From NCBI RefSeq assembly GCF_030286555.1, contig NZ_JASVWF010000010.1, forward strand, positions 124,001-188,000: 64,000 nt of DNA. The letters are read 5' to 3'. Source of the DNA: Actinomycetospora termitidis (GTDB lineage Bacteria; Actinomycetota; Actinomycetes; Mycobacteriales; Pseudonocardiaceae). A program made the position numbers and the translations under genes. Shown in pieces: positions 42,968 through 55,224 of the stretch (its first letter is position 1; the number at the start of each line of letters is the position of its first letter). The notes under the pieces were generated by a model, which ran no database searches, was not told where the DNA came from, and saw only the letters and a program-made list of their open reading frames with translations.

Positions 42968-43891
42968 TTGGTGGACACCGTCGCCACCGTCGGGCGCGGC
43001 CGGGAGACCGAGCTTCTCCAGGCCGCGCTCGACGGCGGTACCCATGTCGTCCTGGAGGGCCCGCCGGGCACCGGGAAGTCGACCCTGCTGCGCGGGGTCG
43101 CGCACTCCCGCAGCATCGGCTTCCACTTCGTCGAGGGGAACGCCGAGCTGACGCCGGCGCGGCTGGTCGGGCACTTCGACCCGGCCCGCGTGCTGGCCGA
43201 CGGGTACGTCGAGGAGATCTTCGTCGACGGCCCCCTCGTCTCGGCGCTCCGCGAGGGCGGGCTGCTCTACATCGAGGAGCTCAACCGCGTCCCCGAGGAG
43301 ACCCTCAACGTCCTCATCACGGTCATGAGCGAGGGCGAACTGACCGTCCCGCGCCTCGGCCGGATCCCCGCCGAGACCGGCTTCCGCATGGTCGCGGCGA
43401 TGAACCCGTACGACGCGGTCGGTACGGCGCGGATCTCCGCGGCCCTGCACGACCGCACGTGCCGGATCGCCATGGGCTACCAGTCCGCGGCCGACGAGGC
43501 GCAGATCGTGGCGGGACGCGCGCCGGTCACCCCGGACGCGTGGCGGGAGAAGGCCGTCGACCTCGTGCGCCGCACCCGCGAGCACAAGGACCTGCGGACC
43601 GGCTCGTCGGTCCGCGGCGCCATCGACCTCGCCCGGGTCACCGTCTCGCTGGCCGCGACCCGCGACCGGTCCGTCGACGACTGGCGGGTCGGACTCGACG
43701 CCGCCACGGTCGCGCTATCGGGCCGGATCAAGGTGATCGAGTCGGCGCGGCGCACGCCGGAGGAGGTCATCCGGGAGCTCTACGAAGCGGTCTTCGGGCG
43801 TGAGCCGTCGGAGGACGATCCGTCCGACTCCTCCGGGGATGATGCGTCGGGGGGAGCCAGAGCCCGCCCGGCGCGGGCAGCGGAGGGGTAG
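42968..43891 (+). CDS. MoxR-family AAA+ ATPase
   Basis: A 307-residue AAA+ protein of the MoxR/CbbQ/CoxD type. Walker A is GPPGTGKST (about 31-39), Walker B LLYIEELNRV, sensor 1 in AAMNPYD, and arginine-rich helices follow. The C-terminal 30 residues are Asp/Ser/Ala-rich. MoxR ATPases work with vWA partners to insert or remodel metal cofactors or complexes. TTG at 42968 has GGAG 9 nt upstream and GTG at 42971 is next to it. The vWA gene starts at or shortly after its stop, and the ADH upstream is a possible client. Confidence 0.88.
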   Translation: MVDTVATVGRGRETELLQAALDGGTHVVLEGPPGTGKSTLLRGVAHSRSIGFHFVEGNAELTPARLVGHFDPARVLADGYVEEIFVDGPLVSALREGGLLYIEELNRVPEETLNVLITVMSEGELTVPRLGRIPAETGFRMVAAMNPYDAVGTARISAALHDRTCRIAMGYQSAADEAQIVAGRAPVTPDAWREKAVDLVRRTREHKDLRTGSSVRGAIDLARVTVSLAATRDRSVDDWRVGLDAATVALSGRIKVIESARRTPEEVIRELYEAVFGREPSEDDPSDSSGDDASGGARARPARAAEG

Positions 43892-44040
43892 ACCGCAAGT
43901 CCCGCCAGAAGGCCGCGCCGAAGACGTCGCGGGCGGACCTCGCCCGTCGTCACGAGGACTTCGAGTCGGTCTCGCCGCAGGTCGGCGAGATCGACCAGGA
44001 GACCTTCGACGCGCTCCTGCGGGAGGACCCGGGGGCCGCG

Positions 44041-44793
44041 ATGGAGCTCCTGGTCGACATGACGAAGGCGACCGACGAGACGCTGCGGGAGAAGGCACGC
44101 CGACTGGCGGGCACGCTCCTGCTGGAACGCTCCAAGGTCGGGCCGTCGCGCGCCCGGGGCTCCTCCAAGCTCCGGCTGCGTCCGGCCGACCGCGGCGGGG
44201 ACATCGACATCGACGCGTCGATGGAACCGCTGGTCGAGGCGCGGGCCGCCGGCCTGCCCCCGCACCTGGAGGACCTCCACGCGATCGACTGGGCCCAGCC
44301 GGGCATCGCGTTGTGCCTGCTCGTCGACACCTCCGGGTCGATGACGGGCGGGCGACTGGCGGCGGCGGCCCTCACGGCGGCCGCGTGCGCGTGGCGGGCG
44401 CCGGAGGAGTTCGCGGTGGTGTCGTTCGAGCGGGAGGCGACCGTGCAGCGCGGGCTGCACCAGCCGACGCCCCCGGAGATCCTGGTCGACCAGCTCCTGG
44501 CCCTGCGGGGTCACGGGGTGACGGGGTTGTCGGCGGCGATGCGTTCGGCGGCGGACCAGCTCGTGGCGGCGCGCTCGTCCCGACGGGTCACGGTGCTGCT
44601 CTCGGACTGCCGGGCGACCGACGACAAGGACCCGGTGCCCCTCGCCGCGTCCCTGGACGAGCTGCTGATCCTTGCCCCGGCCGACGACTCGTCGGACGCC
44701 GTCGCGCTGGCGGAGGCGGTCGGGGCGCGGGTCGAGACGATGGCCGACCCGTCGGAGGCCCCGGCGGCGCTGGCGCGGTTGCTCGACGCGTAG
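44041..44793 (+). CDS. von Willebrand factor A domain protein (MoxR partner)
   Basis: 250 residues from the first normal start codon, ATG 44041. The vWA domain holds the MIDAS motif LLVDTSGSM near residue 100, and later VTGLSAA (Thr region) and VLLSDCRATDDKDP. High-quality coding sequence in the same frame continues upstream to 43891, right at the MoxR stop (DRKSRQKAAPK, DLARRHEDFESVSPQV), with a GGAGGGG site before it. That 50-codon stretch has no ATG, GTG or TTG, so either the original start was lost or an unusual codon is used. CoxE-like vWA proteins act with MoxR ATPases in cofactor maturation. Confidence 0.75.
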   Translation: MELLVDMTKATDETLREKARRLAGTLLLERSKVGPSRARGSSKLRLRPADRGGDIDIDASMEPLVEARAAGLPPHLEDLHAIDWAQPGIALCLLVDTSGSMTGGRLAAAALTAAACAWRAPEEFAVVSFEREATVQRGLHQPTPPEILVDQLLALRGHGVTGLSAAMRSAADQLVAARSSRRVTVLLSDCRATDDKDPVPLAASLDELLILAPADDSSDAVALAEAVGARVETMADPSEAPAALARLLDA

Positions 44794-44809
44794 GAGGTGG
44801 CTTCGCCTC

Positions 44810-44849
44810 GTGAGCACTCAGTGGGGCTACAGCCCCACTGAGTGCTCAC
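44810..44849. terminator. Palindrome family B, copy 2
   Basis: Perfect 19-bp arms, GTGAGCACTCAGTGGGGCT at 44810-44828 and its complement at 44831-44849, separated by AC. It begins 16 bp after the vWA stop, and the convergent carrier-protein stop codon (44846-44848) lies inside the right arm. Confidence 0.8.
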
Positions 44850-45106
44850 ATGGGGCTCGCCCCCACCTCCACGAGGAAGTCGGCCATCGCCGCGACCGAG
44901 CGGAAGCGCTCGATGTCGAAGTCGTCGAGCGGGAGCTGCACGCCGAAGGTCTCCTCCAGCGCCACGATCAGCGTCACCAGCGCCAGGGAGTCGATGAGGC
45001 CGGCCTCGAGGAGGTCCTCCTCGGCGGACGGCACGTCGATGCCCGCCCGGTCGCTCACCACGTCCGCCACCTGGGACCGGAGCGCGGCCGTGGTCTCGGT
45101 CAACAT
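44846..45106 (-). CDS. Free-standing acyl/peptidyl carrier protein
   Basis: An 86-residue carrier protein. The phosphopantetheine attachment site is Ser40 in EAGLIDSLALVTL, within a four-helix pattern (ALRSQVADVVSDRAGI, LVTLIVALEETFGVQL, SVAAMADFLVEV). ATG at 45106 shares its A with the stop of the adenylation gene (TGATG) and has AAGGAGAG upstream. The adjacent amino-acid-activating enzyme would load it, making a type II NRPS-like thiolation module of the D-alanyl carrier protein style. Confidence 0.9.
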   Translation of the reverse strand: MLTETTAALRSQVADVVSDRAGIDVPSAEEDLLEAGLIDSLALVTLIVALEETFGVQLPLDDFDIERFRSVAAMADFLVEVGASPM

Positions 45107-46686
45107 CACTCGCTCTCCTTCGGCGCCGGTCGGAACCGCTCCCGCAGCACCGGCCGGTCGATCTTCCCGTTCACGTTCTTCGGCAGTTCGTCGAGCACGA
45201 GCCACTTCGCCGGCACCATGTAGCGCGGCACGAGCGTCCCCACCGCCCGGCGCATGTCGTTGACCGGCAGCTCCGCGCCCTCGGTCACGGAGTACGCGCA
45301 GCAGATCGTCGTGCCCTCGAACCCGCCGAGGTCGACGCCCACCACCGCGCACTCGCGCACGCCCGACACGGTGTTCACCGCGGTCTCGATCTCGCCCAGC
45401 TCGATCCGGTAGCCGCGCGACTTGATCTGCGAATCGGTCCGTCCGAGGAAGTGGACGACGCCGTCGGCGTCCGCGCGGGCCAGGTCGCCGGTCTTGTAGA
45501 TCCGCTCTCCGTCCGGCCCGGTGACGAACGCGGCGTCGGTCTTCTCCTGGTCGCGCCAGTACCCCGGCGACAACCCGACCCCGCCGATGTACAGCTCGCC
45601 GATCTCCCCGACGGCCGCCTCCCGGCCCTCGTCGAGCACGACCAGCGACTCGCCGTCGCACGGCCGCCCGATCGGCACCGGGACGGACTCGTCCTCCGGG
45701 ACCGAGGGAACGTCGTAGTACGACGAGGCGATCGTCGCCTCGGTCGGCCCGTACAGGTTCGTGAACCGCACCCGCGGGAGCTTGCGCATCCAGTGCGCGA
45801 GGATCGGCGTCGGCAGCACCTCGCCGCACCACAGCAGCCGCTCCAGCGCCGGGAAGTCGTCCTGCCCGACGGCGTCGAACCGCGCCAGGTAGGTCAGCAC
45901 CGACGGCACCGAGAACCACTGCGTGAGCTCCCGGTCGCGGATGAACGCCGCCGTCCTCCGCGCGTCCAGGCCCAGCGACGCCGGCACGAGGTGCAGCTCC
46001 GCACCGGCGGCGAGCGTCGCGTAGATGTCGAACGTCGAGAGGTCGAAGTGCAGCGGCGGGTGCCCCGAGATCCGGTCGCCCGGCTTCGTCCCGAAGTGCC
46101 CGAGCGCCCAGTCGACGAACGCCGACACCATGTCGTGCGTGATCATCACGCCCTTCGGGATCCCGGTGGATCCCGAGGTGAAGAGCAGGTGCGCGAGCGG
46201 ATCCTTCCCGACGTCGGGTCGGGTCGGGTCGAGCGCCGCGATGTCACCCGCGGCGAACGCCGTCGTGAAGCGCTCCCCCTCCAACGGCGACTCCAGCGAG
46301 CCCACCGTGAGGTCCGGGAGGCCTTCGTCGACGAGGCCGTCGACGAGCGTCTCGGCCGTCGCGTCCGCGAGCAGCACCGTGGGCTCGGCGGAGCGGACGA
46401 TCCGCGCGACCCGCGCGGCCGGGCTCGCCGAGTCGACCGGCACGTAGACCCCGCCGGCCTTGAGCGTCCCGATCAGCGACGCGATCGTCCACGGCGTCTT
46501 GGCCGCGAGCACCCCGACGCGGTCGCCCGGCGCCACACCGCGGTCGACGAGCATCGACGCGATCCGGTTCGTCAGCGCGTCCAGGTCGGCGTAGGAGAGG
46601 GTCTCGACGCCGTCCGGCCCGACCAGCGCCGTCGAGCCCGGGGAACGTTCGGCCGAGGCGGTGAGCAGGTCCTCGAGACGAGTCAC
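45106..46686 (-). CDS. Amino-acid adenylation enzyme (NRPS A-domain / DltA-like)
   Basis: A 526-residue stand-alone adenylation enzyme. A3 is LLFTSGSTGIPKGVMITH, A4 HFDLSTFDIY, A5 TNLYGPTEAT, A7 YKTGDLA, A8 GRTDSQIKSRGYRIELGEIE and A10 PKNVNGKIDR with the catalytic Lys. The Asp after Phe in A4 is the residue that holds the alpha-amino group in A domains, so the substrate is an amino acid; which one cannot be read by eye. GTG at 46686 overlaps the monooxygenase stop (GTGA). It charges the carrier protein encoded next. Confidence 0.9.
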   Translation of the reverse strand: MTRLEDLLTASAERSPGSTALVGPDGVETLSYADLDALTNRIASMLVDRGVAPGDRVGVLAAKTPWTIASLIGTLKAGGVYVPVDSASPAARVARIVRSAEPTVLLADATAETLVDGLVDEGLPDLTVGSLESPLEGERFTTAFAAGDIAALDPTRPDVGKDPLAHLLFTSGSTGIPKGVMITHDMVSAFVDWALGHFGTKPGDRISGHPPLHFDLSTFDIYATLAAGAELHLVPASLGLDARRTAAFIRDRELTQWFSVPSVLTYLARFDAVGQDDFPALERLLWCGEVLPTPILAHWMRKLPRVRFTNLYGPTEATIASSYYDVPSVPEDESVPVPIGRPCDGESLVVLDEGREAAVGEIGELYIGGVGLSPGYWRDQEKTDAAFVTGPDGERIYKTGDLARADADGVVHFLGRTDSQIKSRGYRIELGEIETAVNTVSGVRECAVVGVDLGGFEGTTICCAYSVTEGAELPVNDMRRAVGTLVPRYMVPAKWLVLDELPKNVNGKIDRPVLRERFRPAPKESE

Positions 46687-47696
46687 TCGCCGCCACCCAC
46701 TGCCACCACGCCCGCCCGGCGGAAGACCTCGCCGATGTGGTCGAGCTCCTCGGCCGACGGCGGGATGTCCAGCACGAACACCCGGGTGCCCTGCCCGGCG
46801 TAGTGCGCGATCGCGGCGGCCACGCGGTCGTAGGAGCCGACCAGGTACGGGCAGAACGTCTGGTAGTTCTGGAACGGCCCGAGCCAGAACGGGTCGGGCT
46901 CGCCGTCGACGGTCACCGGCTGGGCCTTCGCGGCCTCCGAGAGCTGGGCGTGCCACGACGAGTCGCTCGCCCGCATCGCCATGGAGTGCGCGATCTGGCC
47001 CTTGCGGTCGGTCGGGAAGCGCTCCTCCGCGACCTTCCACGCATCGGCGGTGTCCTCGCGCGCGACGATCCCGACCCGCACGCCCCCGCCGGTCGGGGCC
47101 TCGGAGGTCTCCTGGCCGAGCGGCTCCGGGTACCGGATCGGCACCGCGCCGATCGCCTCGGCCGCCGCGCGGCCGGCGGGCGACGACCCGGAGATCAGCA
47201 CCTCCGGCATCAGCTCGGCCGGCAGCGCCGGGGCGAGCTTGAGGTTGTGCACCTGGTGCCAGCGACCCTCGTGCGTGACGGTCTCGCCACGCAGCAGCGC
47301 CATGAGGATCTGCGTGTACTCGGTGGTGCGCGCGTAGCGGTCGTCGTGCTCGGTCGGGTCGCCCAGTGCGAGCAGGTCGTTGCGGAACCCGCCCGCGAGC
47401 ATGTTGAGGTGCACCGACCGGCCGTGCAGGTAGGACAGTGAGGACACCATCGACGCCGCCGTGAACGGGTGCATGTACACCGGCTGCACCGCGACCAGCG
47501 GGGCGAGGCGCTCCGTGGCCGTGATCGCGTGCTGGGCGACCAGCCACGGGTCCGCGATGCCGTTGTCGGTGTAGACGAGCATCCCGGTACAGCCCGCGGC
47601 CTCGCTCCACCGCGCGACCTCGGCGACCGCTCCCGCGTACTCCCCCGCCGGCACGTCCTTCGACTGCGGGCAGGTGGAGTAGATCTGGACGCTCAC
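46683..47696 (-). CDS. Luciferase-like flavin-dependent monooxygenase
   Basis: A 337-residue member of the bacterial luciferase/alkanesulfonate monooxygenase family. It has the TIM-barrel start VQIYSTCPQS, YTDNGIADPWLVAQHAI, VYMHPFTAASMVSSLSYL, LNMLAGGFRNDLLALGD (flavin site) and EVLISGSSPAGRAAA. It uses reduced FMN supplied by a separate reductase. In NRPS-type pathways such enzymes hydroxylate carbon or nitrogen of carrier-bound amino acids, which fits its place between carbamoyltransferase and A-domain genes; all are coupled by GTGA overlaps. Confidence 0.88.
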   Translation of the reverse strand: MSVQIYSTCPQSKDVPAGEYAGAVAEVARWSEAAGCTGMLVYTDNGIADPWLVAQHAITATERLAPLVAVQPVYMHPFTAASMVSSLSYLHGRSVHLNMLAGGFRNDLLALGDPTEHDDRYARTTEYTQILMALLRGETVTHEGRWHQVHNLKLAPALPAELMPEVLISGSSPAGRAAAEAIGAVPIRYPEPLGQETSEAPTGGGVRVGIVAREDTADAWKVAEERFPTDRKGQIAHSMAMRASDSSWHAQLSEAAKAQPVTVDGEPDPFWLGPFQNYQTFCPYLVGSYDRVAAAIAHYAGQGTRVFVLDIPPSAEELDHIGEVFRRAGVVAVGGGE

Positions 47697-49435
47697 CGCG
47701 CGGTGCCTTCCACGACGAAGCCCTCGATGTACAGCCGGTCGAGGGCGATCCGGGCGAACGTGTCGACCGCGGTGGCCGGGTCCATGATCAGCGGCTGGCC
47801 CTTGACGTTGAACGACGTGTTCACGACGCAGCCGGTGCCGGTGCGCTCCTTGACCTGCGCCAGCAGAGACGCGAACGTCGGGTTCAGCCCGGGCGTCACG
47901 GTCTGGATCCGGGCCGAGTCGTCCTCGTGCACGATGCCGGACAGGACCGGCTTCGCCTCCGGCCGCACGTGGGCGGTGCAGAGCATGTAGTGGTCCGGCT
48001 CGAAGCCGCGGGTGACGAAGAGCCGGTCCCGGTCGTCGACGTGCACCGCGGGGGCGAACGGACGGAACGCCTCGCGGAACTTCACCGCCGAGTTGATCCG
48101 GTCCTTGATCCGGTCCCCGTCGGGGCGGGCCAGGATCGAGCGGTTGCCCAGCGCGCGCGGCCCGAACTCCATGCGGTCGTGGAAGACCGCGATGATCCGG
48201 TCCGCAGCGATGTCGTCGGCGGCCGCCGCGAGGTACTCGTCGGTCATCCCGACCTCGCGCCACTGCAGGTCGGGCCGCGCCTCGAGCACGGCCCGCACCT
48301 CGTCGGCGGAGTAGCGGGCGCCGAGGTAGGGGTCGAACGGCGTCGCGACCGGCTTCAGGTCCTCCGCCACCGCGTACGCCGCGCCCAGCGAGGTCCCGTC
48401 GTCCCCGGAGGCCGGCTGGACGAACAGGCGCTGCACGCCGGGGAGGTCGGCGATCGACTGGTTGGACTTGCAGTTGAGGAACGTCCCGCCGGCCAGCGCC
48501 AGGTTCGTCTCTCCGGTCTTCTCCAGCCAGTACCCGACGAGGTCCACGAGCAGGTCGGTCAGGCACTCCTGCATCGAGGCCGCGAAGTCGGCCTCGTCGC
48601 GCTGGATCGAGCCGTCCGGGAGCGACGGGGTGAACGTCTGCTCCTCGAGCATCGTCCGGGCGTACGGGTAGCCGTGTTCGGCGTCGGAGAGTGCTCCCGT
48701 GGGCCAGTCGATCACGACGGAGCCCTTGTCGTGATCGAATCGGGTGAGCTTGCGGAAGACCTCGCGGTAACGCTCCGGGTCGCCGTAGGGCGCGAGGCCC
48801 ATGACCTTGTACTCGTCATTGTTGAACTGGAAACCGAGGAACCGCGTCCCGATGGAGTACAGAATGCCGAGGGACGCGGCGATCGGCTGCGAGTGCAGCT
48901 TCTCCAGCTCACGCCCGTCGAAACGGAAGATCGTCACCGAGTCGACCTCGCCCATGCCGTCGGAGACGACGGCGAGCCCACGGTCGAACCCGCTGGGCAC
49001 GACGGCGGACAGCGCGTGGGCCCGGTGGTGCTCTACCGGCGTCAGCGCCGCGGCCAGCTGCGGCCACCCCGCGTCGGTGAGCGCGTCGCGCACCGTCTGC
49101 GAGCTCAGGACCTCCTTGAAGTGGGTCCGGTTCAGGACGAACGCCCGCTCGTGGCGGTCGTAGTCGAAGCCGTGGGCCACGACGTCGACGTCGTCGGCGG
49201 ACACCCCCGCCTCGGCCAGGCACCAGGCGATGGCCTGCCGGGGCAGGGCGCCGGTGCCCTTGTCGCCGTCGAACCGCTCCTCGGACGCGGCGGCCACGAG
49301 CGTCCCGTCGACGATGATCGCGGCGGCGCTGTCGAGTCCCTGACAGATTCGCGCGTCGAGCGGATCGATGTCCGGGTTGTCCTCGTGAAGCTTCCGTTGC
49401 GAATTCGGAAGACCACTGAGTCCGAGAACGATCAT
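47693..49435 (-). CDS. Carbamoyltransferase (NodU/CmcH/TobZ family)
   Basis: A 580-residue enzyme that carbamoylates a hydroxyl group using carbamoyl phosphate and ATP. The Kae1-like part carries the metal motif VEHHRAHALSAV (His136/137/140), VVSDGMGEVDS and FNNDEYKVMGLAPYG. The YrdC-like C-terminal part carries FGPRALGNRSILA and NTSFNVKGQPLI. The 5' end uses less GC-rich codons than its neighbours (around 48830-48880 and 49380-49435), a possible sign of transfer. It is the first gene of the four-gene operon, and the monooxygenase gene overlaps its stop. Confidence 0.92.
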   Translation of the reverse strand: MIVLGLSGLPNSQRKLHEDNPDIDPLDARICQGLDSAAAIIVDGTLVAAASEERFDGDKGTGALPRQAIAWCLAEAGVSADDVDVVAHGFDYDRHERAFVLNRTHFKEVLSSQTVRDALTDAGWPQLAAALTPVEHHRAHALSAVVPSGFDRGLAVVSDGMGEVDSVTIFRFDGRELEKLHSQPIAASLGILYSIGTRFLGFQFNNDEYKVMGLAPYGDPERYREVFRKLTRFDHDKGSVVIDWPTGALSDAEHGYPYARTMLEEQTFTPSLPDGSIQRDEADFAASMQECLTDLLVDLVGYWLEKTGETNLALAGGTFLNCKSNQSIADLPGVQRLFVQPASGDDGTSLGAAYAVAEDLKPVATPFDPYLGARYSADEVRAVLEARPDLQWREVGMTDEYLAAAADDIAADRIIAVFHDRMEFGPRALGNRSILARPDGDRIKDRINSAVKFREAFRPFAPAVHVDDRDRLFVTRGFEPDHYMLCTAHVRPEAKPVLSGIVHEDDSARIQTVTPGLNPTFASLLAQVKERTGTGCVVNTSFNVKGQPLIMDPATAVDTFARIALDRLYIEGFVVEGTAR

Positions 49436-49522
49436 CGAGCGGGGCCCCCTCGTGGACGACGAATAGTCGGCTCCCTCACTATGACGTGCGAGTTCGCCTC
49501 CGGTTCATCCGGGGTGTGGGAC

Positions 49523-51532
49523 TCAGAGCCGCTCGGCCGTCTCCGTCGCTCCCGGGAACGGGTGGCCCAGCACCGAGACGAACGCCCGCTGGTAGGCGTC
49601 GACCATGGCGTCGTCGGTGTAGAGCGCCAGCGCCCGCTCCCGCCCCGCCCGTCCGAGGCGGGCGAGCTCGGCGCGGTCGTCGAGGACGCGACGCAGCGCC
49701 TCGGTCCACGCCGGGACCGTCACGGGGTCGACGACCACGCCCGCGGCGCCGAAGTCGAGCATCTCGGGCACCGACCCGCTCGCCGACGCCATCACCGGCA
49801 TCCCGCGCGTCATCGCCTCGACCATGACGAGCGGGAACGCCTCGAATCCGCTGGGCACGCACAGGACGTCGGTCTCGGCGAAGGCGTGGTCCGGCCCCGG
49901 GGACACCCCCCGCCAGCGCACCCGGCCCCGCAGGTAGGCCGGGGTCTCGGCCTCCATCTCGGCCTGGTCAGGCCCGACGCCGAAGATGTCCAACGTCCAC
50001 TCGTCGGGCCGCGCGAGGGCGTCGAGGGCCTTGATCAGCAGCGTCGTGTTCTTGTAGGTCTTCAGCCGGGTCAGCATGCAGAAGCGCACCGGCCCGGTCG
50101 CGGACACCTCGCCCAGCGGCTCCCCCGGGGTCAACCCGTTCGGCGCGACCATCACGGTGTCGGTGAGCCGCTGGTGGCGCGACAGGTCGGTGTGGTGCTG
50201 CCGGGACAGCACGAGCAGGGCGTCCGCGGTGCGCAGCGCCCGGGCCTGCGCCGCGGAGTAGGTGGGCCGCTCGAGCTCGGCCGGGTCGTGCGCGGCGGGG
50301 ATCCAGTACCGCCGCTGACCCGCCGCCCGGCCGAGCGCGCGCCACGCCGTCGCGAACCCGATCTCGGTCTTCGTGCAGCCCCCGACGACGATGGCCTCGT
50401 CGGTCGCGGCGACGTCGACGACCGGCTGCCACCAGGGCTGCATGAGCAGGCGCACCCGGGGGTCGAGCTCCGCGATGTACTGCCCGAGGTGCTGGAGGAC
50501 CACGAGGGTCACCGGGTGCCCGCGCTCGACGAGCTCGTTGGCGAGCACCACGCGCTGGCGTTCGGCGCCGCCGGGCCGCAGCCCGTTGCTGATCACGACG
50601 ACGGCGGGTCGTCCCCCGGCCTCGCGGGCCAGGGCGTCGAGCCGGGCCCGACGGGGACCGCGCTTGGAGCGCTGCACGCGGTCGAGCAGCGTGGAGCCGG
50701 CGGCGTAGAGCGACCCGCGCCCGGCGTTGTGCTCGAGGCCGAGCACCATCACCTGCGCGCTGCGCAGCAGGTCCGAGCCGCGCAGGGAGGCCAGGGGGTC
50801 GTCGGCGACGGTGCCGCCGGAGGAGTGCCGTACCTGGGGCCCGGCCTCGTCGTCGACCAGGCGCAGGTCCCACCCGGCCTTCCGGGCGGCGGGCTGCCAC
50901 GTGGCGTCCTCGCCGTAGACGAAGAACTGCTCGTCGAACGGGCCGAGGGCGTCCCAGGCGTCGCGGGCGATGAACAGCGCGCACCCGGTCAGGTAGCCGT
51001 CCACGTGCTCGGGTGCGGACGGGTACAGGTCGCTGATCGTGCGGCCTCGGAGCCGCTTCGCGTAGCCCGCCGAGTTCAGCAGGTTGCGCACCACGCCCTG
51101 CTCCCGGTGGGCCACGTCCCACGGCTGGTCGCGGCCTTCGGGGTCGAGCACGGTCGGCGAGACGACGGCGACCTCGGGCTCCTCGAGTACCTGGCGGGCC
51201 CGCGTGCAGGGCCCGAGGAGCTCGGCGTCCGGGTTGAGCTGGAGCACGTCGTGCTCGGGGACCTGGGCCATCAGCGCGTTCATGGCGGCGATGTAGCCGA
51301 GGTTGAACTCGGAGAACGTCCACGTGACGTCCGGCCGGGACGCCGCCAGCTCGCGCACCGCGGGCGAGCCGGAGGACGCGTTGTCCCACACGTGCACCCG
51401 CGCGTCGGGCAACCACTTCTCCACGCTCGCGAGCGCACGGTCGAGCAGGTCGGCGCGCCGGTAGGAGACGATCAGGACGGCCAGACCCCGCCCGTCGGGT
51501 CGAGCTCCGCTGCGCTTCGTCTCCTGGGACAC
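49523..51532 (-). CDS. Two-domain glycosyltransferase (GT2 plus GT4)
   Basis: A 669-residue fusion. The N-terminal GT2 domain (about 15-260) has LIVSYRRADLLDRAL, VWDNASSG, LNPDAELLG and EDATWQPAARKAGW. The C-terminal GT4/GT-B domain (about 300-660) has VISNGLRPGGAERQRV, RFCMLTRLKTYKNTTLLIKA and the donor-site PSGFEAFPLVMVEAMTRGMPV. Such fusions build rhamnan- or galactan-type glycans. GTG start at 51532. It lies 87 bp upstream of the carbamoyltransferase operon on the same strand and might glycosylate that product, but a cell-envelope role is equally likely. Confidence 0.85.
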   Translation of the reverse strand: MSQETKRSGARPDGRGLAVLIVSYRRADLLDRALASVEKWLPDARVHVWDNASSGSPAVRELAASRPDVTWTFSEFNLGYIAAMNALMAQVPEHDVLQLNPDAELLGPCTRARQVLEEPEVAVVSPTVLDPEGRDQPWDVAHREQGVVRNLLNSAGYAKRLRGRTISDLYPSAPEHVDGYLTGCALFIARDAWDALGPFDEQFFVYGEDATWQPAARKAGWDLRLVDDEAGPQVRHSSGGTVADDPLASLRGSDLLRSAQVMVLGLEHNAGRGSLYAAGSTLLDRVQRSKRGPRRARLDALAREAGGRPAVVVISNGLRPGGAERQRVVLANELVERGHPVTLVVLQHLGQYIAELDPRVRLLMQPWWQPVVDVAATDEAIVVGGCTKTEIGFATAWRALGRAAGQRRYWIPAAHDPAELERPTYSAAQARALRTADALLVLSRQHHTDLSRHQRLTDTVMVAPNGLTPGEPLGEVSATGPVRFCMLTRLKTYKNTTLLIKALDALARPDEWTLDIFGVGPDQAEMEAETPAYLRGRVRWRGVSPGPDHAFAETDVLCVPSGFEAFPLVMVEAMTRGMPVMASASGSVPEMLDFGAAGVVVDPVTVPAWTEALRRVLDDRAELARLGRAGRERALALYTDDAMVDAYQRAFVSVLGHPFPGATETAERL

Positions 51533-51554
51533 GGCTGTCGATTATGTGCGCTCC

Positions 51555-51606
51555 GCGCAGGTGAGCACTTCGGGGGGCTATAGGCCCTCGAAGTGCTCAC
51601 CTGCGC
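51555..51606. terminator. Palindrome family B, copy 3
   Basis: Perfect 18-bp arms, GCGCAGGTGAGCACTTCG at 51555-51572 and its complement at 51589-51606, with a partly paired centre containing CTATAG. It starts 11 bp beyond the stop of the GNAT-like gene and lies just upstream of the glycosyltransferase start. Confidence 0.75.
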
Positions 51607-51616
51607 TCCGCCCACA

Positions 51617-52678
51617 TCACTGGCGCACCGCATGCGAGACCAGCCACTCGCCGTCGAGGTGGCTGCACAGCGACGTGGTCGAGCTCAGCAGGCCGAGCAC
51701 GTTGGCCTCGGCGTGGACCAGTGCCCGGGCGTTCTTGCGGACGAGCACCCCGGGCCGCCCCAGCAGCCCGGCGGTGACCGGCTCGAGCCGGCCCTGGACG
51801 GCGGCCGCGCCCTGCGTGGCGGCGTGCGCGACGAGGTGGTCGAGCACCGGCTCCGGGTCGGGCCCGGTGACGCCGATCTGGAGGACCTCGGCCACCCCGC
51901 CGGGCGGGAGCAGGTAGAGGAACCAGCCGAGCACCCGCCCCTGCGGTCCGCGGACGAGCTCGGCGGAGAGCGCGCCGCGGTCGAGACGGCGCAGTTCGGC
52001 GAGGACCCACTCCAGCCAGGCAGGGTCGTAGTCCGGCCGCAGCCGCAGCCGACGGCCCGCCGCCGCAACCTGCTCGGCAAGGGTCTCCGCGGTGAGCGGC
52101 TCGGTGGTCCCGGCGGGTCGCGGCGGGGGCGGGACGAAGCGCCCGCCGAGGGCGTCGACCGGCCGGGACAGCACCCGGGCGGCCCGTCCGAGGCGGTCCG
52201 AGCGCCGGGACACCAGGCTCTCCGCCGTCGAGCCGGGCGAGAGCACCCGGAACCACGCCAACGAGGCGCCCGGCAACTCCTGGCCGCCGAGGCCGAGCCA
52301 GAGGCCGCGGGACTCGTCGTTCGCGCGGTCGGCGACGGTGAACTCCTGCGGCCCACCCAGCAGCTTGCGATTGAGCAGGGCGCCCACGCCCTTCGACCGC
52401 CAGTCCGGGTGCGCGACGAGGTTGCTGCTCACCGCCATCCGCACCTTGCGGCCGTCGAGCACCATGCGCCGGGTGCTCGCGGCGATGAACCCGACGACGC
52501 CGCCGTCGGAGCCCTCGTGCACCAGCGGCGGGATCTCGGGGTCCGCCCACGGGTCCTCGATCAGGATCCGCTGGAGGTAGGGCGCGACGCGTTCGGCCGA
52601 CGCCCCTCCCATGACCTGGGCGAACAGGGTGCTGACCTGCGGGAGGTCGCTGCGCTCCAGCGCACGGATGCCGGCCAT
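51617..52678 (-). CDS. GNAT-superfamily acyltransferase-like protein (double domain)
   Basis: A 353-residue protein. The N-terminal half is a recognisable GNAT domain (IRALERSDLPQVSTLFAQV, GGVVGFIAAS, the acetyl-CoA-loop-like SNLVAHPDWRSKGVGALLNRKLL near residue 90). The C-terminal half looks like a second, degenerate GNAT/FemAB-like domain (GRVLGWFLYLLPPGGVAEVLQIGV). The same layout is seen in proteins of surface-polysaccharide clusters. ATG at 52678 was chosen; GTG at 52687 is possible. Palindromes flank the gene on both sides. Confidence 0.7.
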   Translation of the reverse strand: MAGIRALERSDLPQVSTLFAQVMGGASAERVAPYLQRILIEDPWADPEIPPLVHEGSDGGVVGFIAASTRRMVLDGRKVRMAVSSNLVAHPDWRSKGVGALLNRKLLGGPQEFTVADRANDESRGLWLGLGGQELPGASLAWFRVLSPGSTAESLVSRRSDRLGRAARVLSRPVDALGGRFVPPPPRPAGTTEPLTAETLAEQVAAAGRRLRLRPDYDPAWLEWVLAELRRLDRGALSAELVRGPQGRVLGWFLYLLPPGGVAEVLQIGVTGPDPEPVLDHLVAHAATQGAAAVQGRLEPVTAGLLGRPGVLVRKNARALVHAEANVLGLLSSTTSLCSHLDGEWLVSHAVRQ

Positions 52679-52763
52679 CCGCGGCACTCTACGACCGTCC
52701 GCGACCGGCCCACGAGCCGCCGTCGTCCACCTCGTCGTCGCCGCTCGGGGTCCCGAAACGCAC

Positions 52764-52827: not shown

Positions 52828-55224
52828 CTACGCGTCCGTGCCGTCCGGGACGTGCTCGGTCTCGGACTTGCCCGCGTACTCCGGGCCGGCCTGGTGGCGG
52901 GTGCCCGGGTCCGAGGCGGAGGCGCCGTGGATGGCGCGCCACACCGCCTCCGGGGTCAGCGGCATGTCGATGTGCCGCACCCCGAGGGGCGAGAGGGCGT
53001 CGATGACGGCGTTGTGCACCGCCGGCGTCGACCCGATCGTCCCGGACTCCCCGATCCCCTTCGCCCCGATGGGGTTGAGGTGGGTCGGGGTCTCGGTGTT
53101 GGAGGCCTCGTAGGAGCAGAGGTCCGCCGCCGAGGGGATCGTGTAGGACGCCAGGTTGCCCGTGGTCGGGTTGCCGTCCTCGTCGAACGTGACCCGCTCG
53201 AAGAGCGCCTGCGAGATGCCCTGCGCGATCCCGCCGTGCTGCTGACCGGCGACGAGCATCGGGTTGAGGATCTTGCCGCAGTCGTCGACCGCGACGTGGC
53301 GCAGCGGCTTCACCATGCCGGTGTCGAGGTCGACCTCGACCACCGAGATGTGCGTGCCGAACGGGAAGCTCGACTGGCCCTGCTTGAAGTCGAGGTCCTC
53401 GCGCAGCGCGCGCCCGTTGCCGTCCTCGAGGCCGGTGCCGTCCTCCGACGCCGTGGCGACCTGCTGCCAGGTGATCGTGTTGCCGGCGACGCCGCGCACC
53501 CCGAAGCCGTCGTCGGAGTGCTCGATGTCCTCGACGGCCGCCTCGAGCAGGTGCGCCGCGATCTCACGCGCCCGGGAGACGAGCTCCTGGGACGCGTTGT
53601 GGATCGCCGAGCCGCCGGTCTGCAGCGAGCGGGAGCCGAGGGTGCCCGCACCGGAGCGCACCACGGCGGTGTCGGACTGGACGACCTTGACCTTCTCCAT
53701 CGGCACGCCCAGCACCGAGGAGGCGAGCTGCGCGAACGCGGTCTCGTGGCCCTGGCCGTGCGCGCTGGTGCCGGCCATGACGGTGAAGGTGCCGTCGGGG
53801 TGGGCCTGCGCGGAGCCGTACTCGCCGTCGAGGCCCAGCGGGGCGGTGACCTCGACGTAGGAGCCGACGCCGATGCCGAGGGCGACCCGGTCGCCCGCGT
53901 CGCGGCGGCGCTTCTGCTCGGCGAGCAGCTCCTGGTAGCCGGAGGCCTGGATCGCGGCGTCGAGCGCCTTCTCGTGGTCGGCGTTGTCGTACTCGGCGCC
54001 GGTCAGCGAGGTCATCGGGTACTGCTCGGGCTGCAGGTAGTTCATGCGGCGCATCTCGAGCGGGTCCACGCCGATCTCGTCGGCGGCCATGTCGATGATG
54101 CGCTCGAGCAGCTGGGTCGCCTCGGGACGCCCGGCCCCGCGGTAGGCGCCGACCGTGGTGGTGTTGGTGACGACGGTCTTCCAGGCGAAGTCGATCGCCG
54201 GGATGTCGTAGACGCCCTGGGCCAGCAGCTGGGTGAGGCTCGGGAGGATCGTGCCGACCGCGGGGTAGGCCCCGCCGTCGCCGATGACCGAGGCGCGCAG
54301 CCCGACGATCTTGCCGCTGCGCTTGACGCCGAGCTCGACCCACTGGACCTGGCTGCGCCCGTGGACCATCGAGAGCATGTTCTCCGAGCGCGTCTCGTTC
54401 CAGCGCACCGGCCGGCCGAGCAGCAGCGCCGCCTTCGCGGCGATCGTGTACTCCGGGTAGGCCGTGGCCTTCGGCCCGAAGCCACCACCGACGCGCGGCG
54501 CGACGACGCGGACCTGGTCGGCCTCGAGGCCGAGGTCGCCGGCGAGGGCGTCCCGGGCGCCGTGCGGGGTCTGAGTGGAGAGCCAGAGGGTGATGCCGCC
54601 CTCGGGCGTGCCGGGCTCGGCGACGCACGCGTTCGGCTCCATCGGCACGCCGGCGACGCGCTGGTTGAGGAACTTGCCCTCCACCACGACGTCGGCCTCG
54701 TCGAAGATGCCCTCGACGTCGCCGGTGCCCGCGCCCGCCGCGAGGTTGCTGCCGACCTCGTCGAAGAGCAGCGGCGCGCCCTCGGCGAACGCCTCTTCGA
54801 TGCCGGTGACGGCGGGTAGCGGCTCGATGTCGGGGAAGACGGTCTCGGCCGCGTCGAGCGCCTGGCCGGCCGTCTCGCCGATCACCGCGGCGACGATGTC
54901 GCCGACGAACCGGACCTTGCCCTTGGCCAGGTGCGGGCGGGCCATGGCGTCGGGGACGACGCCCGGCAGCCCGGGGCGGTCGGCCACGTCGAGGTCGGCC
55001 GCGGTGTAGATCGCGACGACGCCCGGCATGGACCGGGCCTCCTCGACGTCGATGTCGCCGAGCGTCCCGTGCGCGATCGGCGACCGGACGAAGACCGCGT
55101 GCAGCGACCCCTCCACGGGCAGGTCACCCGTGTAGAGGCCGGCACCGGTGATCAGCTCCTGGTCCTCGGTGCGCTTGACCGGGTGTCCCAGGATCGAGCC
55201 ACCGGTGTGGGTCGTGACGGACAC
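52828..55224 (-). CDS. Molybdenum hydroxylase large subunit (xanthine/CO dehydrogenase family)
   Basis: A 798-residue molybdopterin-cytosine-dinucleotide-binding subunit. It begins with GGSILGHPVKRTED. Cofactor motifs include PRVGGGFGPKA, GAYRGAGRPEATQ, GTSAHGQGHETAFAQ and the catalytic Glu in GAKGIGESGTIG. The active-site loop AYRGAGR is not the AYxCSFR loop of true (form I) CO dehydrogenase, so this is a form II/aldehyde-purine type hydroxylase. The FAD and iron-sulfur subunits normally encoded beside it are absent from the window. GTG at 55224 with AGAGGAG upstream; terminator at 52764. Confidence 0.92.
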   Translation of the reverse strand: MSVTTHTGGSILGHPVKRTEDQELITGAGLYTGDLPVEGSLHAVFVRSPIAHGTLGDIDVEEARSMPGVVAIYTAADLDVADRPGLPGVVPDAMARPHLAKGKVRFVGDIVAAVIGETAGQALDAAETVFPDIEPLPAVTGIEEAFAEGAPLLFDEVGSNLAAGAGTGDVEGIFDEADVVVEGKFLNQRVAGVPMEPNACVAEPGTPEGGITLWLSTQTPHGARDALAGDLGLEADQVRVVAPRVGGGFGPKATAYPEYTIAAKAALLLGRPVRWNETRSENMLSMVHGRSQVQWVELGVKRSGKIVGLRASVIGDGGAYPAVGTILPSLTQLLAQGVYDIPAIDFAWKTVVTNTTTVGAYRGAGRPEATQLLERIIDMAADEIGVDPLEMRRMNYLQPEQYPMTSLTGAEYDNADHEKALDAAIQASGYQELLAEQKRRRDAGDRVALGIGVGSYVEVTAPLGLDGEYGSAQAHPDGTFTVMAGTSAHGQGHETAFAQLASSVLGVPMEKVKVVQSDTAVVRSGAGTLGSRSLQTGGSAIHNASQELVSRAREIAAHLLEAAVEDIEHSDDGFGVRGVAGNTITWQQVATASEDGTGLEDGNGRALREDLDFKQGQSSFPFGTHISVVEVDLDTGMVKPLRHVAVDDCGKILNPMLVAGQQHGGIAQGISQALFERVTFDEDGNPTTGNLASYTIPSAADLCSYEASNTETPTHLNPIGAKGIGESGTIGSTPAVHNAVIDALSPLGVRHIDMPLTPEAVWRAIHGASASDPGTRHQAGPEYAGKSETEHVPDGTDA

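What the first reader, a model, noticed from the sequence alone, without database searches (positions are those of the whole stretch)
44846..49435. Compact carbamoyltransferase / luciferase-like monooxygenase / A-domain / carrier-protein operon
Four genes with GTGA or TGATG overlaps encode a NodU-type O-carbamoyltransferase, a luciferase-like monooxygenase, a free-standing amino-acid adenylation enzyme with all core motifs, and a carrier protein with Ser40. There is no condensation, thioesterase or ketosynthase domain. Seen directly: domains and coupling. Known: A domain plus carrier tether an amino acid; luciferase-like enzymes in such pathways hydroxylate carrier-bound amino acids; NodU-type enzymes carbamoylate hydroxyls. 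Inference: an amino acid is tethered, hydroxylated, then O-carbamoylated to give a small carbamate or N-carbamoyloxy product. I do not recognise this as a described pathway.
Basis: partly seen in the sequence, partly recalled or inferred. Interest (0 to 1): 0.78.

Follow-up and report, generated by a model that had tools for sequence, protein, structure and literature searches.

The report
Glycine tailoring-and-transfer operon, carbamoyl variant
A six-gene bacterial operon appears to load glycine onto a small carrier protein, oxidise it, cap it and pass it to another molecule; in other bacteria the carbamoyl-capping enzyme is often replaced by a formyl-adding one, which points to an undescribed way of decorating molecules with a modified glycine.

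Summary
The four genes are as described and overlap. With an upstream glycosyltransferase and GNAT acyltransferase the run is six genes (44846-52687, minus strand).

The constant unit is monooxygenase (LLM) + adenylation (A) + carrier (ACP), clustered in 31 of 33 related loci from four phyla. The carbamoyltransferase is not constant: it is near the trio in 14 of 33 loci, one formyltransferase subfamily in 10, neither in 9, both in none. That subfamily scores high in 12 of 20 LLM-bearing genomes (10 of the 12 helped build the profile), 0 of 60 LLM-lacking ones, and 0 of 6 carbamoyltransferase-type genomes outside the genus. Within Actinomycetospora 5 of 12 carbamoyltransferase genomes carry both.

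The A pocket (DLFFLCLIAK) is nearly constant across two deep lineages and matches the glycine enzyme AlmE at 7 of 10 positions, including residues reported to enforce glycine; a cysteine code also matches 7.

Best reading: glycyl-ACP is oxygenated, probably on nitrogen, capped by carbamoyl (here) or formyl (elsewhere), then transferred to an acceptor, perhaps a glycan. Substrate: fairly strong inference; chemistry: moderate; acceptor: weak. New variant of a known kind.

The parts
51617..52687 (-). Tandem-GNAT acyltransferase-like protein (356 aa); proposed transferase of the finished acyl group
49523..51532 (-). GT2-GT4 fused glycosyltransferase (669 aa); present in one Actinomycetospora clade only
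   Evidence: Pfam Glycos_transf_2 and Glycos_transf_1; in L025-L028 and L039 but not in L029-L034 or L046.
47693..49435 (-). NodU-superfamily carbamoyltransferase (580 aa), the exchangeable capping enzyme
46683..47696 (-). LLM flavin monooxygenase (337 aa), proposed oxygenase of glycyl-ACP
45106..46686 (-). Stand-alone amino-acid adenylation enzyme (526 aa), pocket DLFFLCLIAK, predicted glycine
44846..45106 (-). Carrier protein (86 aa), Ser40, nearest models DltC-like
44809..44850 (-). Strong hairpin overlapping the carrier stop codon, possible transcript end
   Evidence: 19 pairs, -43.3 kcal/mol for the 60-nt stretch, z -8.43; no T tract, not reported by the terminator scan.

Best explanation
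A carrier-protein-based glycine tailoring and transfer operon. The A enzyme adenylates glycine and loads it on the carrier (fairly strong sequence inference). The LLM, probably an FMNH2-dependent two-component oxygenase, oxygenates glycyl-ACP; on glycine the likely sites are N or C-alpha, and N is favoured because the partner enzymes are of kinds that add formyl or carbamoyl groups (inference). The carbamoyltransferase then caps the product (here), where other bacteria have a formyltransferase (inference from gene alternation). The GNAT moves the finished acyl group from the carrier to an amine or hydroxyl of an acceptor, perhaps an envelope sugar or glycan (weak inference). Shown: gene content and overlaps, co-conservation, pocket conservation, local alternation of carbamoyl- and formyltransferase. 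Inferred: glycine, site of oxygenation, order of steps, acceptor.
For: LLM, A and ACP genes are clustered in 31 of 33 loci besides the window (the ACP of L078 was missed by my caller and read by translation). Pocket code: identical in 24 of 32 A domains, one or two letters changed in 7, different in L075. Between the two deep A lineages (tree) the code columns are 92% identical against 33% over all columns; 0 of 20000 random nine-column sets from the same region reach that. The window code matches AlmE (glycine) at 7/10, L042 at 8/10; DltA and LgrA module 2 at 5/10 each (letters read). A review passage says AlmE L248 and C316, checked by mutagenesis, restrict it to glycine, and that a Leu-to-Thr change near that Leu helps DltA take D-Ala; the window has Leu216, Cys287 and Leu311 at the matching columns (my mapping). 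Formyltransferase subfamily: 347 bits or more in 12 of 20 LLM genomes, 180 bits or less in 60 of 60 LLM-lacking genomes, and below that line in all 6 genomes with an adjacent carbamoyltransferase outside the genus. In Actinomycetospora 4 of 4 genomes with LLM but no carbamoyltransferase carry it elsewhere. An acyltransferase is within six genes in 26 of 33 loci. Glycan-type genes are near L035, L037, L038, L069, L070, L071 and L077.
Against: Five of 12 carbamoyltransferase-bearing Actinomycetospora genomes also carry the formyltransferase, so the two are not strict substitutes. Ten of the 12 formyltransferase genomes supplied sequences to the search profile, so only L036's and L074's genomes are new finds. 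A cysteine code quoted for PchE, DLFNLSLIWK, also shares 7 of 10 letters with the window, as many as AlmE (6 for L042; my count). Seven of 33 loci have no recognised acyltransferase nearby (in L041 and L074 the contig ends close by). The glycan-type neighbours I scanned were picked because they looked so, and no background rate was computed; L036, L042, L043, L068, L072, L076 and L078 have mostly other kinds of neighbours by eye, as do Actinomycetospora loci without the glycosyltransferase. LLM relatives also occur with P450, halogenase-like or NRPS genes and other A codes, so the LLM does not imply glycine. L040's genome had no such formyltransferase, and its carbamoyltransferase was not searched for. 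Nothing was measured in a test tube.
Confidence: 0.42

Rival explanations
1. The carbamoyltransferase and the formyltransferase act on the acceptor sugar, not on glycine: glycine is loaded, oxidised and transferred, while formyl or carbamoyl groups decorate the same glycan.
For: Best solved relatives of the formyltransferase by E-value are ArnA (sugar amine) and methionyl-tRNA formyltransferases; glycan-type genes lie near several loci; the window has its own glycosyltransferase.
Against: The formyltransferase subfamily was not found in 60 LLM-lacking genomes; in Actinomycetospora it stands away from the operon with no glycan gene recognised beside it by eye; it is adjacent to the LLM trio in 10 loci.
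Confidence: 0.25
2. The LLM hydroxylates the alpha carbon of glycyl-ACP (or oxidises it further), leading to breakdown of the hemiaminal or to an oxime; the caps serve that product.
Against: Alpha-hydroxyglycine with a free amine is unstable (established chemistry), and in the carbamoyltransferase loci outside the genus no N-acylating formyltransferase was found.
Confidence: 0.15
3. One reading: a diffusible small carbamate made from a hydroxylated amino acid, with no macromolecular acceptor.
For: The four genes are clustered in 14 of 33 loci; LLM relatives occur in secondary-metabolite-like clusters on plasmids.
Against: The carbamoyltransferase is replaced or absent in the other loci, and an acyltransferase is near the trio in 26 of 33.
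Confidence: 0.13

Closest known systems
AlmE-AlmF-AlmG (glycylation of lipid A) and the Dlt system (D-alanylation of teichoic acids)
   Same: Stand-alone A enzyme plus stand-alone carrier load one small amino acid for transfer to an envelope molecule; pocket Asp, Leu and Cys as in both, with Leu where DltA has Thr.
   Different: Adds an LLM oxygenase and a carbamoyl- or formyltransferase; the proposed transferase is GNAT or hexapeptide type, not the AlmG or DltB type (their types recalled; operon scanned). AlmE is not the window A enzyme's best solved relative (174.3 bits), though it is for L078's (327.4 bits).
Alkanesulfonate monooxygenases SsuD and MsuD
   Same: Nearest solved relatives of the LLM by sequence and fold.
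   Different: 26-29% identity; far below NCBIfam cut-offs; most SsuD catalytic residues (recalled) are replaced.
NodU-type carbamoyltransferases NovN, GdmN and TobZ
   Same: Both Pfam domains; matched over most of the length.
   Different: 131.7 bits against the 1000-bit NodU cut-off; here the partners are an amino-acid carrier set.
Hadacidin (N-formyl-N-hydroxyglycine), a fungal antimetabolite (recalled)
   Same: Glycine, N-oxygenation and N-formylation would describe the formyltransferase variant.
   Different: Chemical analogy only; no carrier-dependent or bacterial route was seen in the 20 of 25 titles and abstract starts listed.
Palmerolide cluster (LLM plus carbamoyl transferase in a PKS-NRPS)
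   Same: LLM proposed to hydroxylate a carrier-bound chain, and a carbamoyl transferase in the same cluster (passages of PMC8739492).
   Different: A large assembly line; here only one amino acid and one carrier.

Membership tests
AlmEFG / Dlt-type aminoacylation | Stand-alone amino-acid A enzyme with a stand-alone carrier | tested here: met
AlmEFG / Dlt-type aminoacylation | Glycine pocket of AlmE: Asp, Leu, Cys, and Leu in place of DltA's Thr | tested here: met
   Window D215, L216, C287, L311; roles from passages of PMC11253843; AlmE and DltA letters. Mapping of the Leu/Thr position is mine. A cysteine code shares as many letters.
AlmEFG / Dlt-type aminoacylation | Dedicated AlmG-type or DltB-type transferase | tested here: not met
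   No such family among the six operon proteins; the rest of the genome was not searched for one.
AlmEFG / Dlt-type aminoacylation | Acceptor is lipid A or teichoic acid | not testable with these tools
   Acceptor unknown.
SsuD alkanesulfonate monooxygenase | Score above the equivalog cut-off | tested here: not met
   105.2 bits against 518.2.
SsuD alkanesulfonate monooxygenase | Catalytic Cys, His, Tyr and His residues (recalled) | tested here: not met
   In the profile alignment the Cys of TGRSCED, the His of IRLHVI and the Tyr and His of SGYPH face other residues; the Arg of IRLHVI is kept.
NodU-type carbamoyltransferase superfamily | Carbam_trans_N and Carbam_trans_C domains | tested here: met
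NodU proper | NCBIfam NodU equivalog cut-off | tested here: not met
   131.7 against 1000 bits.
Canonical NRPS | Condensation domain | tested here: not met
   None reported for the six operon proteins.
Hadacidin-type pathway | N-hydroxylation, then N-formylation, of glycine | not testable with these tools
   Only gene content and pocket are known.

The most novel reading that the evidence does not exclude
A carrier-bound route to N-hydroxyglycine derivatives: the formyltransferase variants make N-formyl-N-hydroxyglycyl-ACP, a tethered hadacidin, and the carbamoyltransferase variants, as in this window, make the matching carbamoyl derivative. A GNAT or hexapeptide acyltransferase then places this metal-binding or antimetabolite-like group on sugars of the envelope or exopolysaccharide: an oxidised, capped counterpart of lipid A glycylation, found in at least four phyla.
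Probability: 0.22. Interest if true: 0.82.

Novelty: new variant of a known kind. Interest (0 to 1): 0.62.

Why it matters
It ties a family of LLM oxygenases, mostly annotated as alkanesulfonate monooxygenase, to a predicted amino acid and a carrier, with a natural experiment built in: the same trio next to a formyl- or a carbamoyl-transferring enzyme. It makes testable whether bacteria oxidise carrier-bound glycine on nitrogen, and whether such a group decorates glycans. It also shows that the carbamoyltransferase, the part that first drew attention, is the replaceable one.

Tried and rejected
Alkanesulfonate monooxygenase function: rejected because scores are below cut-offs and recalled catalytic residues are replaced. 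Carbamoyltransferase as the core: rejected, 14 of 33 loci. Strict genome-wide exclusivity of the two capping enzymes: rejected within Actinomycetospora; for genomes with the formyltransferase outside the genus a distant carbamoyltransferase was not searched. Cysteine as substrate: PchE's predicted code DLFNLSLIWK (passage) shares 7 of 10 letters with the window, as many as AlmE; set aside because the AlmE match holds the residues reported to set glycine and is better for the second lineage (8 against 6 for L042), but not excluded. L075 departs from the code. The 432-bit LgrA match of the A enzyme sums two domains of 209.1 and 214.8 bits, so it does not favour LgrA's glycine module (its glycine role is recalled).

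Distribution, centres included: LLM profile at E <= 1e-80 in 1 of 396 (the own genome), 2 of 294, 7 of 232, 3 of 199, 1 of 197, 4 of 41 genomes; these samples overlap, and in most genomes only part of the first-look candidates was scored. At E <= 1e-40 with the window LLM: 16 of 61, all in the own genus (own genome plus 15 of 17 congeners). No relative in viral contigs; 7 plasmid records.

Formyltransferase in the genus: 17 of 18 genomes match at E <= 1e-8, 9 of them at E <= 1e-64; I count only those 9 and read the rest as other formyltransferases. LLM-less G004 has a 113-residue end-of-contig piece at 43% identity that could be the subfamily.

Literature: ten searches in one open-licence library; two searches returned no paper, the others listings in which I saw no description of this gene set. 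I read passages of PMC8739492, PMC12930378 and PMC11253843, no whole paper. Subscription journals and MIBiG were not available.

Fold matches of the GNAT show fold, not donor or acceptor. The promoter and terminator scan found nothing. Gene calls come from my own simple caller, which can miss genes: it missed the ACP of L078 and the formyltransferases of L091 and L094. L045 was left out of both trees and the code table, L041 has no A domain to include; Fisher tests on cap exclusivity were run without G457 and G461, and again with G457. Fisher values ignore relatedness, and the formyltransferase profile was built from 10 of the 12 positive genomes plus three Actinomycetospora sequences.
Full report
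WHAT IS THERE. On the minus strand, from 52687 down to 44846, six genes follow each other: a GNAT-fold protein, a GT2-GT4 glycosyltransferase, a NodU-type carbamoyltransferase, an LLM flavin monooxygenase, a stand-alone amino-acid adenylation (A) enzyme and a carrier protein (ACP). A hairpin of 19 pairs overlaps the carrier stop codon.

WHICH PARTS BELONG TOGETHER. I fetched 22 loci by LLM similarity and 11 further neighbourhoods, and called genes with a simple script. In 31 of these 33 loci A and ACP genes are clustered with the LLM (L078's ACP seen). The exceptions are L041, where the contig ends, and L045, a distant NRPS locus. An acyltransferase lies within six genes in 26 of 33: 23 GNAT type, of which those of L042 and L078 are only weakly like the window's, and 3 hexapeptide type. 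A carbamoyltransferase is near in 14 of 33, a formyltransferase in 10, neither in 9, both in none. Twelve of the 33 loci are Actinomycetospora (8 with carbamoyltransferase, 4 with neither nearby) and are not independent. Sources include Actinomycetota, Planctomycetota, Chloroflexota and Pseudomonadota.

THE TWO CAPPING ENZYMES. A profile of 13 formyltransferases (10 from the loci above, 3 from Actinomycetospora) was searched in 80 genomes. Scores leave a gap: 12 genomes at 347 bits or more, all others at 180 or less. The 12 are among 20 LLM-bearing genomes; none of 60 LLM-lacking genomes from the same groups is above the gap. Ten of the 12 supplied profile sequences; the two new ones are the genomes of L036 and L074, whose operons showed neither cap nearby. 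All six genomes outside the genus with a carbamoyltransferase by the trio are below the gap, as are L040's and L045's. A distant carbamoyltransferase in the formyltransferase genomes was not searched. Inside the genus the carbamoyltransferase is in 12 of 18 genomes and a close formyltransferase (E 1e-64 or better) in 9 of 18. The four genomes with LLM and no carbamoyltransferase (G005-G008) all have it, and five genomes have both. Around eight of those nine genes I saw no gene of the trio. So of the 9 loci with neither cap nearby, six have the formyltransferase elsewhere (L046 taken as G007 by matching identities), L040 and L045 do not, and L041's genome was not searched. On trees of LLM and A the labels carbamoyl, formyl and none need at least 10 and 8 changes, so caps were exchanged or lost several times.

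THE AMINO ACID. The ten pocket positions read DLFFLCLIAK in the window and in 24 of 32 A domains in all; seven more differ by one or two letters, and L075 differs. The A domains form two deep lineages; between them the code columns are 92% identical against 33% over all columns, and 0 of 20000 random sets of nine columns from the same region reach that. So the substrate is probably the same in nearly all. Letters of solved enzymes were read from alignments: AlmE DLHLFCLIAK, DltA DLMTMCTVAK, LgrA module 2 DIANLCIIYK; the window shares 7, 5 and 5. Passages of the review PMC11253843 say that Leu248 and Cys316 near the C-alpha make AlmE glycine-specific, verified by mutagenesis, and that smaller side chains near that Leu, one a Leu-to-Thr change, make room for D-Ala in DltA. 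The window has this Leu and Cys and keeps Leu where DltA has Thr. A cysteine code (PchE) also shares 7 letters, so glycine is the best prediction, not a certainty. The A enzyme of L078, in the second lineage, finds AlmE as its best solved relative (327.4 bits); the window enzyme scores AlmE at 174.3 bits.

COMPARISON AND NOVELTY. The logic of one amino acid, one carrier and one transferase is that of AlmEFG and Dlt. The added oxygenase and the exchangeable formyl or carbamoyl cap are not part of either as far as I recall, and the searches listed in Tried and rejected did not show the combination. I call it a new variant of a known kind. The boldest reading not excluded is a tethered hadacidin and its carbamoyl counterpart; hadacidin's structure is recalled, and one search showed no bacterial pathway for it in the 20 of 25 listings seen.

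Noticed in passing
44809-44850: Very stable hairpin overlapping the carrier stop codon, without a T tract; its core is found once in the window with up to 3 mismatches.
   Followed up: partly
42968-44793 and 52828-55224: The operon lies between a MoxR-like/VWA (CoxE-like) pair on the plus strand and a molybdopterin-binding oxidoreductase large subunit on the minus strand; L025 has similar flanks. An empty site was not looked for.
   Followed up: no
L099, L100, L101: Alphaproteobacterial plasmid clusters with an LLM relative beside adenylation and PPTase genes, with carrier, P450, halogenase-like flavoprotein or acyl-CoA dehydrogenase in some; products unknown to me.
   Followed up: partly
L102 3551-14511 and L103: Streptomyces plasmid NRPS clusters with an LLM relative between the NRPS and a gene annotated tryptophan 7-halogenase, plus hppD and aminotransferase genes.
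   Followed up: no
L087-L094: In Actinomycetospora the formyltransferase stands alone; seven of eight regions share one neighbourhood and L093 has another. My caller missed the gene in L091 and L094, where the search had placed it.
   Followed up: partly
L075 7725-9323: A domain with departing pocket code DLLLIGLIAK in an otherwise typical formyltransferase-type locus.
   Followed up: no
L072 11345-16088: The formyltransferase-type operon lies beside a second carrier and A enzyme and genes that resemble aminodeoxychorismate lyase and a PabA-PabB type synthase, judged from sequence starts.
   Followed up: no
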